Assembly: GCF_963576615.1 (NCBI RefSeq)
Contig: NC_088708.1
Location: forward strand, 1,488,001-1,552,000
Direction of reading: 5' to 3'
DNA length: 64,000 nt
Origin: Watersipora subatra
Taxonomy: Eukaryota > Bryozoa > Gymnolaemata > Cheilostomatida > Watersiporidae
Part shown: positions 36,001 to 39,000 of the stretch, one piece after another
Numbering within the stretch: position 1 is the stretch's first letter
How the letters are laid out: each line of letters begins with the position of its first letter
Position numbers and translations under genes: made by a program
Notes under the pieces: model-generated
Seen by the model: only the letters and a program-made list of their open reading frames with translations
What the model was told of the DNA's origin: nothing
Databases searched by the model: none

Positions 36001-39000
36001 TTTGAAACAGTCTTGATTTTTGCCTTAAAAAATATTCAGCTGAAAAACTATTATTATTACTTTAAAAAGAAAGCTGAGCTTTAAGCTTATAATTAATACA
36101 AAAAAAGACTTGTAGCTAGACTTTCAGTGAGTCAGCCCCGGTAGTCGTCTTCTCATCAGTTTGACTATATGGCAGCTCCTTGAGCCCTAGTAGTGCGTAT
36201 CACTAGCTAGAGTCATTCACTATGTCAATGGCCTAAATTAATCATTTAGAGACAAGTATAGACAACTTTAGTTAGAGAAATGTAAAGTAGGGTTTTCAAC
36301 TGGAGCCCCATCATATTTCTGTAGTATCAGTCAGATTTGCTAAAATATAAAAGTTGGATTTTTAAGGAAACAACAAATCGCATTTAGTATAAGTCCTTCA
36401 GTATAGTATTACTACTGCTCAATTCATTTAGTATAAGTCCTTCAGTATAGTATTACTTCTGCTCAATGCATTTAGTATAAGTCCTTCAGTATAGTATTAC
36501 TACTGCTTAATGCATTTAGTATAAGTCCTTCAGTATAGTATTACTACTGCTCAATGCATTTAGTATAAGTCCTTCAGTATAGTATTACTACTGCTCAATG
36601 CATTTAGTATAAGTCCTTCAGTATAGTATTACTACTGCTCAATGCATTTAGTATAAGTCCTTCAGTATAGTATTGCTACTGCTCAATGCATTTAGTATAA
36701 GTCCTTCAGTATAGTATTACTACTACTCAATGCATTTAGTATAAGTCCTTCAGTATAGTATTACTACTGCTCAATGCAAAATGAAGATCAACCAAAATTG
36801 CCTAACTTGTATAAGATCAAGATGAAAATGTTTCTAAACTAGTAATACATGAGAGTTCATACATTGCAGATATTTGGGAGGTGTTTGACCAGACCAATGA
36901 GGTAGCTGCCGTGTACATGACTTGGCATCATCAGTATTTCTTTCCACCGTGTATTGTTTATGACAGCCAGTGTAGCCTCGTAGTGCGCTACAACAGGTGT
37001 AGAGAGACACTTCTCAAGTCACTACATTTGTTATAAAACTAAAAAAATATTATGTACTGCTACCAGTCAGAGAATTGTAGATTGAACAACACAACAAGGA
37101 TTGGGAGTTGCCCAACACTTCCATGAAGATAGTTGAACAATTGTAAAGAGGCTGTTAGCGTTTATTAATGTTGTGTATAAGTTTGATTCTACAAGTCAGT
37201 GGCTTCTCTGGTACAGTCTCCAGTGAAATAATTCAGATATAGGAACTTGATACTTACACCGTTCAATGCCAATATCAAGGAAGGTTCGATTTTCAAAGTT
37301 CTCTTTTATTTCGGCTCCCATGCTTAGAAGCAGGTCGACACATTTAGGTTTGTTAGCCATAATGGCCTCATGCAGCGAAGTGTTCTAGAACATGATAAAT
37401 TTATTAATAACATTATGCTAGCTTACGACTGTCCTTATTTTTAAAATGATTTAGTTTAGTATAATTCACAACACACAAAATCAAAATGACATTTAATTGA
37501 GCACACTTTATAATATCTCAACTGCCAGCGATAATATTCAGGAAGGTATATAGAAAACCGTTACTAGTGAGTGATACTACACAACACACACCTCACCATG
37601 GAATGCCGCTAATGATGCAATTATATATGAGCAATCACCGACATGCATAGGCCTACTTACACCGACACGCATACTTACACCGACACGCATACTGACAGTG
37701 ACATGTATACTTACACCATCATGGTTTTCAGCGTTGAGAAGAGACGGGTGAACATTAAGGAGCAGTTTTATAGTTTGTGTGTAGCTTTGCTTGCTAGCCA
37801 AATGGAGTGGCGTGTTTCCTCCATGGTCCCTTGAAGAGTATTTGAAATAGTAGTACAAGTAACTAGTACTAGTGCAACATAGCAGTGAAAGATAGTAGCA
37901 CTTCATGCGGATGCACATCCACTCTGTCTCTGCTAATCAGCATATCACAATGGTAATTATGTGTCAAGGCAAGCGGTTATGCGCTGGAGGTCAAGGCAAG
38001 CATACTTAGGTAAAGAAAAGGGTAACAGAAATCTGCTAATAGCAGTTCCCACAAACTTGTATGTTTACTGTGGTCTGTATGAAACTATATCATAGAGGAA
38101 AGCGTGCGGCTTCTAGCGGAAGACACTGATAGAAAAGAGAAAAGGAGTGCGGGGTTAGTAGGTTTGACAAGTGAGATAAAGGAGGTATAGAAGGGCAGTG
38201 AACAACACACTAGTCACCATTCCTACCGATGAAGAAGGGCTCCCTGCTGCATCAGCAGTGCCACTATTTTAACATGACCAGATTCGGAGGCTAAATGCAA
38301 GGGAGTTTTCCCTTCGTTATTAACTTCATTGATCACATAACTCCCATTGAGACTATCTAACAAGGCCCGGCACGTGTTTATTCGGCCATACCTATAACAG
38401 AAGAGCAACAAAGAAAATACAGTTACCGCAAGATGGCCTACCTATTGAAAAGAGCACCACTCTGCATCAACAATGCAACTATTTTCACATTTCCAAACTG
38501 AGCGGCCAAGTGAAGAGCAGACCTCCCATTTACATCTGACATATTGATTATGAATTTTCCTTGCGGGTCTTTCAATATTCGCTTGCAAGTCTGGAATCTT
38601 CCATACCTGCAACACGCTTACATTAAAAGTTACTTTCGCAAATCGTCGCTTACTTCCGCTCCATTGAGCTTGTACATCCAAAACATGTTAGTTTAACAGT
38701 TCTCAGTCCACTGACAACCAAGCATGGTTCCTTTTCTCAAAGTAATTTTCAAACTTTGTAGAGTTTCAAGTCTAAAGTATCCAAGTAGTCTAGTAATGTG
38801 AAGTGAAATCTTTCAAGTTGCATCATGCATTCATTGGCAACTTACTGCCGATACCTGGTGATTATTACTCTACATACATTGCTGCAAAGTGCAGAGGAGA
38901 TTGCTTGCTTTTATCTGTGCAGGTCACGCGTGCTCCTAGGGCAAGTAGAGACATGAGTGAAGGCAGGTTTCCTATTTTGGATGCGTAGTGTAAAGGGGTG

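What the first reader, a model, noticed from the sequence alone, without database searches (positions are those of the whole stretch)
38227..38606. Candidate mutually exclusive exon pair in the ankyrin stack of TRPA1
Seen: exons 38606-38442 and 38391-38227 are both 165 bases, share start and end phases, and encode homologous segments (YGRFQTC.. and YGRINTC.., about half identical by eye). Either one joins exon 10 (giving ATG) to exon 13 (giving an Arg codon) without a frame change. The intron between them is only 50 bases. Including both would put YGRINTC directly after QSGALFNR, losing the ankyrin hairpin that normally precedes it. Known TRPA1 proteins have one such segment. Inference: a splice switch changes part of the sensory ankyrin domain, so one gene could make two channels with different stimulus response. 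I know of TRPA1 isoforms in insects and mouse, but not of this cassette.
Basis: partly seen in the sequence, partly recalled or inferred. Interest (0 to 1): 0.86.

Follow-up and report, generated by a model that had tools for sequence, protein, structure and literature searches.

The report
Swappable ankyrin exon in bryozoan TRPA1
In the red ripple bryozoan, the gene for the irritant- and heat-sensing channel TRPA1 carries two alternative versions of one exon, packed so tightly that a transcript should take only one of them, and the exchanged piece matches the surface where, in the fly channel, the protein's own tail docks on its sensing domain.

Summary
The window lies on chromosome 1 of Watersipora subatra (Bryozoa) and the gene is TRPA1. 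Exons 38606-38442 (X1) and 38391-38227 (X2) are both 165 nt, share phases, are 28/55 identical in protein, and either joins the flanking exons in frame. A public RefSeq model (isoform X2) contains X1 and skips X2. Bugula, the only other bryozoan TRPA1 found, carries an X2-type segment (44/55).

The intron between them is 50 nt, and every usable branch adenine lies within 24 nt of the X1 donor, under the proposed limit of about 50 nt. The 24 introns of the modelled gene are 108 nt or longer. Direct X1-X2 splicing is therefore unlikely.

None of 122 TRPA1 proteins scored shows two copies. Insect TRPA1 exon pairs lie at other sites. The cassette corresponds to fly residues 487-541, which include every ankyrin residue named in one cryo-EM paper as contacting the gating-critical C-terminal loop. 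X1 changes two of them (N491Q, H525N).

Best reading: a mutually exclusive pair that retunes coupling between the ankyrin stack and the C-loop. The architecture is well supported. X2-containing Watersipora transcripts, tissue use and altered channel behaviour are not shown.

The parts
27036..56372 (-). TRPA1 gene, coding span of RefSeq model P0002 (25 coding blocks, 24 introns)
   Evidence: P0002 mapped exactly; fly and human TRPA1 are the best solved relatives; ankyrin families and PF00520
38878..39044 (-). Upstream common exon (exon 10), ends in AT; its last ankyrin helix directly precedes the cassette
   Evidence: helix 430-436 in the model
38442..38606 (-). Cassette exon X1 (165 nt), diverged version, used in the RefSeq model
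38392..38441 (-). 50-nt intron between the cassettes; adenines at 3, 8, 18, 19, 24, 47, 49 from its 5' end
38422..38425 (-). Candidate branch site TAAC (A at 38423, position 19 of the intron)
   Evidence: consensus match only; not mapped by experiment
38227..38391 (-). Cassette exon X2 (165 nt), Bugula-like version
37715..37829 (-). Downstream common exon (exon 13), supplies G to complete Arg
27491..27681 (-). Exon coding the end of the coiled coil and the C-loop (KMEI...DEG), the presumed partner of the cassette surface
   Evidence: partnership inferred from fly TRPA1

Best explanation
X1 and X2 are tandem-duplicated, mutually exclusive exons of the TRPA1 gene of Watersipora subatra. Splicing step (inferred from spacing): the branch adenine for the X2 acceptor lies at most 24 nt from the X1 donor, too close for U1 and U2 snRNPs to assemble together, so X1 is not joined to X2; each transcript joins exon 10 to X1 or X2 and then to exon 13. 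Protein change (shown by sequence): 27 of 55 residues differ in the second helix of one ankyrin repeat and in the next repeat, while the ankyrin core is kept. Function (inferred): the swap remodels the ankyrin surface that in fly TRPA1 docks the C-terminal loop and coiled coil, and so shifts heat or electrophile sensitivity. X2 is the conserved version and X1 the diverged one.
For: Same length, phase and in-frame exchange. RefSeq model with X1 alone. Bugula segment 44/55 to X2, 30/55 to X1. Codon model prefers omega about 0.2, 2 x lnL difference 18.4 from omega 1 and 6.7 from 0.5 (grid, kappa fixed). X1 keeps 15 and X2 17 of 18 positions that are at least 95% conserved in 94 distinct cassettes. 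Intron of 50 nt against 108 nt or more in the 24 introns of the model and about 80 nt or more in 32 estimated CCT introns. Branch adenine at most 24 nt from the donor against a proposed limit of about 50 nt (PMC7969005, passages). X1-containing protein models as a regular ankyrin stack, block pLDDT 88-95. Fly C-loop contacts lie inside the cassette.
Against: No X2-containing Watersipora transcript was seen, and I could not read RefSeq isoform X1, which might contain both exons. The X2 donor is the weakest scored (1.93; minimum 5.19 among 23 others, which were also the training set). The intron sample is small, and some animals splice introns of about 50 nt (recalled). The fly contacts changed by X1 are only two of seven, and Watersipora already lacks the Gln that pairs with H525 in the fly. 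R489A/R527A in the fly left heat response nearly normal.
Confidence: 0.83

Rival explanations
1. Both exons are used but exclusivity is loose: some transcripts include both, as ordinary cassettes, giving a longer and irregular ankyrin stack.
For: Including both keeps the frame; the further RefSeq isoform was not readable here, so a both-in model is not excluded.
Against: 50-nt intron with the branch adenine at most 24 nt from the donor. Both together would place a second helix directly after a second helix. 0 of 122 scored TRPA1 proteins have two motif copies. P0002 lacks X2.
Confidence: 0.08
2. Only one cassette matters; the other is a decaying or rarely used duplicate.
For: X2 has the weakest donor scored; X1 lies on a long branch of the tree (1.04).
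Against: X1 is in the RefSeq model. X2 is 44/55 identical to Bugula. Neither has a stop or frameshift, and both have GT-AG borders. Omega 0.5, roughly one constrained and one free copy, fits worse than 0.2 (2 x lnL difference 6.7). X1 keeps 15 of 18 near-invariant positions.
Confidence: 0.07
3. The pair is mutually exclusive but the two channels behave alike; the swap is nearly neutral or serves expression level only.
For: The ankyrin core and five of the seven contact positions of the fly paper are the same in both (Y487, R489, T492, Lys at 527, R541).
Against: 27 of 55 residues differ and net charge (K+R minus D+E) is +6 against +1. X1 departs at only three near-invariant positions, and two of these are reported C-loop contacts.
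Confidence: 0.25

Closest known systems
Drosophila and Anopheles TrpA1 mutually exclusive exons (exon 1a/1b and exon 10a/10b; mosquito exon 6a/6b; PMC11471635, abstract and passages)
   Same: TRPA1 gene; one of two exons chosen; isoforms differ in electrophile and heat response.
   Different: Those exons encode the N-terminus and a domain between the ankyrin repeats and the membrane segments. Here the cassette lies inside the ankyrin stack (fly residues 487-541) and in a bryozoan.
OGDH exons 4a/4b, exclusivity enforced by branch points near the 5' splice site (PMC7969005, abstract and passages)
   Same: Tandem-duplicated exons separated by a short intron whose branch points lie under the proposed spacing limit of about 50 nt.
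   Different: Metabolic enzyme of vertebrates; intron 118-131 nt in birds and mammals and branch points mapped at 25-41 nt. Here the intron is 50 nt and the branch site is only predicted.
Tandem duplicated exon substitutions in ion channels (PMC9741552, abstract and passages)
   Same: Homologous exon swap that tunes one region while the core is kept; such events are reported as enriched in ion channels.
   Different: That paper treats human events and voltage-gated channels; no TRPA1 ankyrin cassette was seen in the passages shown.
Scaptomyza TrpA1 isoforms (PMC12132172, abstract start and passages)
   Same: TRPA1 splice isoform composition tunes response to electrophiles.
   Different: Upstream alternative exons (L/S) and exons 12/13; not an ankyrin-stack cassette.

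Membership tests
Mutually exclusive tandem-duplicated exons | Adjacent internal exons that are homologous | tested here: met
   28/55 residues, tblastn E 8.6e-16
Mutually exclusive tandem-duplicated exons | Same phases, so either joins the neighbours in frame | tested here: met
Mutually exclusive tandem-duplicated exons | Transcripts contain one and not both | tested here: inconclusive
   One RefSeq model contains X1 only; no X2-only transcript, further isoform or RNA-seq could be examined
Mutually exclusive exons enforced by spacing (tropomyosin/OGDH type) | Branch point under about 50 nt from the upstream donor | tested here: met
   No adenine between positions 25 and 46 of the 50-nt intron; candidates at 24 or less. 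Branch use itself not mapped
TRPA1 channel | Long ankyrin stack, ion-transport domain, C-terminal coiled coil and C-loop | tested here: met
Insect TrpA1 exon 10a/10b pair | Exons encode the region between ankyrin repeats and membrane segments | tested here: not met
   Cassette aligns to fly 487-541, inside the ankyrin stack

The most novel reading that the evidence does not exclude
The cassette is a splice-controlled gain dial. It swaps the docking surface for the channel's own C-terminal loop and coiled coil, so a bryozoan makes from one TRPA1 gene two sensors with different heat or electrophile thresholds. X1 alters just the contacts 491 and 525, which are also both changed in the acorn worm Glandiceps, as if they vary together.
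Probability: 0.4. Interest if true: 0.72.

Novelty: new member of a known kind. Interest (0 to 1): 0.55.

Why it matters
The TRPA1 splice isoforms that I found described vary outside the ankyrin core, so the role of single ankyrin repeats has rested on mutants and chimaeras. This pair is a natural two-state swap of about one and a half repeats at the very site where a fly cryo-EM study places the C-loop contacts. Expressing the two versions would test directly whether that docking sets thermal and chemical sensitivity. It would also give a molecular handle on sensing in bryozoans; the seven papers that hold both 'bryozoa' and 'TRPA1' are, by title, not about a bryozoan channel (listing only).

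Tried and rejected
Gene duplication instead of exon duplication: a search of the own genome with the X1 context gave 25 matches (150 of 293 first-look candidates scored). Three are this locus and the best elsewhere scores 38 bits, like ordinary ankyrin repeats. A search with the pore region gave 5 matches: three in this gene and two distant pores on C4.

RNA-structure switch: the 380-nt exon-intron-exon block folds no better than shuffles (z -0.16, 43 of 100 shuffles at least as good).

Exclusion by reading frame: rejected, all four combinations are in frame.

Further bryozoan pairs: Bugula was the only other bryozoan named in the protein searches (each lists only the best 120 of 3648, 1264 and 2256 hits). 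No Bugula or Flustra genome could be searched here.

Dating the duplication: in a 27-row cassette tree (25 of 94 distinct cassettes plus X1 and X2) X2 pairs with Bugula (91/77) and X1 lies apart, but X1+X2 as a clade is not rejected (6.05 log units lower, AU p 0.107), nor is X1+X2+Bugula (1.65 lower, p 0.309).

Looser motif: in records that show GLAVGD (124 of 240), a looser pattern hits twice in P0006 and P0028, but at residues 79 and 1091, far from the cassette; not counted as second cassettes.

Own slips: one search read a locus in the wrong orientation and was redone. Searches translated the exons in the wrong phase. In one search, 53 of the 72 rows were entered; 12 single-frame copies on C3, four pieces of two further C3 copies and three lone rows were left out.

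Full report
Where the window is. [quoted passage not shown] The Watersipora subatra genome paper (PMC12902671, abstract and passages) gives 783.70 Mb in all and 79.35 Mb for chromosome 1, which fits G000 (783,720,542 bases). The window is therefore from a cheilostome bryozoan.

The gene. P0002 maps exactly onto the minus strand between 56372 and 27036 in 25 coding blocks and 24 introns. It is TRPA1: 698 bits to the fly channel 7ykr and about 640 to human entries, with ankyrin families and PF00520.

The pair. X1 (38606-38442) and X2 (38391-38227) are each 165 nt, enter and leave in the same phase, and can each join exon 10 to exon 13. They are identical at 28 of 55 residues and at 91 of 162 nt; by codon position 28, 42 and 21 of 54, the pattern of coding sequence. 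P0002 contains X1 and skips X2. The label 'isoform X2' implies at least one further isoform, which I could not read; the cluster holds two member sequences but not which. The Bugula protein P0010 carries an X2-type segment: 44/55 to X2, 30/55 to X1.

Both look constrained. A pairwise codon model (grid search, kappa fixed at 2) prefers omega about 0.2, with 2 x lnL difference 18.4 from omega 1 and 6.7 from omega 0.5. In 94 distinct cassettes from 122 TRPA1 proteins, 18 of 55 positions are at least 95% conserved: X1 keeps 15 and X2 keeps 17. X1 and X2 agree at 14 of these 18 and at 14 of the other 37 (Fisher p 0.006). The 122 are those of 240 held records (P0001 and P0002 left out) with the motif and at least 20 identities to X2. 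TRPA1 records with a changed motif were not counted, for example P0011, P0014, P0016, P0017, P0023, P0039, P0082 and P0105. The set is rich in fish, so the frequencies lean that way. 0 of the 122 has two copies of the motif. The own genome gave no other such cassette.

Why exclusive. The intron between X1 and X2 is 50 nt. The 24 introns of the P0002 model are 108 nt or longer, the next being 141. At eight CCT-family loci of the same genome, 32 estimated introns start at about 80 nt and two more inside matches are about 99 and 165 nt. The shortest, cut out by GT-AG and the frame, is 80 nt with CTAAT at 58-62 from its donor. In the 50-nt intron adenines stand at 3, 8, 18, 19, 24, 47 and 49. The last two are in the acceptor, so the branch adenine, most likely A19 in TAAC, is at most 24 nt from the X1 donor. 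For OGDH exons 4a/4b, branch points 25-41 nt from the donor, under a proposed limit of about 50 nt, enforce exclusivity (PMC7969005, passages). The X2 acceptor is 77% pyrimidine over 30 nt and the X1 acceptor 47%, though both score mid-range or better on a matrix from this gene (ranks 15 and 14 from weakest, of 22). The X2 donor scores 1.93, below the lowest of 23 others (5.19); those others trained the matrix, so the comparison is biased against X2, but the X1 donor, also untrained, scores 7.49. Which version is the default is not known.

What changes in the protein. In the AlphaFold model of P0002 (mean pLDDT 80.4) exon 10 ends with helix 430-436, and the cassette gives helices 440-448, 452-455, 466-472 and 476-484 at block pLDDT 88-95. 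The cassette is thus the second helix of one repeat plus the next repeat; joining both cassettes would put a second helix directly after a second helix. By the alignment it corresponds to fly residues 487-541. The fly cryo-EM paper (PMC10073219; passages, and sections 8 and 9 read) names as C-loop contacts H525 and R489 in state 2, and N491, T492, R527, R489 and Y487 in state 1, and R541 in an intersubunit contact of state 1. All lie inside the cassette. Deleting the loop or mutating D1156/E1157 nearly abolished heat and NMM responses. R489A/R527A had little NMM response, while its heat response was comparable or about 25% lower. Watersipora keeps the D-E-G of that loop and the KMEI, but has Ala where the fly has Q1144 and Ser at I1159. 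X2 keeps N491 and H525. X1 has Gln and Asn there, two of its only three departures at near-invariant positions; the third is Leu to Ile. Of the 94 cassettes 2 lack N491 and 2 lack H525, and Glandiceps lacks both; the number is too small to prove that the sites vary together. X1 is more basic, net +6 against +1.

History. In a 27-row tree of the 56-residue cassette, X2 pairs with Bugula (91/77) and X1 lies outside on a long branch. Forcing X1 with X2 costs 6.05 log units, AU p 0.107. A duplication before the Watersipora-Bugula split is favoured, not proven.

Known or new. Searches for TRPA1 with mutually exclusive exons, with bryozoans, with duplicated exons, with isoforms, and for mutually exclusive exons with ankyrin repeats (listings, with four of the papers opened at passages) gave the insect exon pairs at other sites (PMC11471635), the Scaptomyza isoforms (PMC12132172) and no ankyrin-stack cassette. 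The library lacks most subscription papers. Verdict: a new case of a known kind of splicing, at a new and informative place in TRPA1.

Noticed in passing
window 29994-32247: One TRPA1 intron is filled by 59.3 copies of a 38-nt unit at 95% matches. The array begins at the exon border at 32247, and each unit repeats the exon end and its GTAG donor, so the intron holds dozens of decoy-like 5' splice sites.
   Followed up: partly
window 7698-8551 (+): A Tc1/mariner-like transposase in two overlapping frames: HTH_Tnp_Tc3_2 in one, a sub-threshold DDE_3 match in the next.
   Followed up: no
window 21819-24566 (+): Exons of a gene with DUF3522 (PF12036) in at least three pieces, one of them just under Pfam's cut-off; recalled as the TMEM8 family.
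   Followed up: no
window 61130-61327 (-): Fragment of a retroelement reverse transcriptase RNase H domain (PF17919, PF17917). Observed only.
   Followed up: no
G000 contig C3, 22.6-30.7 Mb (e.g. L030, L033, L036): Twelve long single-frame Cpn60/TCP1 matches (four with one stop) and two split ones spread over about 8 Mb, unlike the intron-rich CCT genes elsewhere.
   Followed up: no
G000 contig C4, 36710435-36753917: Two distant relatives of the TRPA1 pore, 33-35% identical; not examined for a cassette.
   Followed up: no
P0007 (Glandiceps talaboti TRPA1), residues 459-515: The acorn worm cassette has Gln at both fly positions 491 and 525, the two contacts that X1 also changes.
   Followed up: partly
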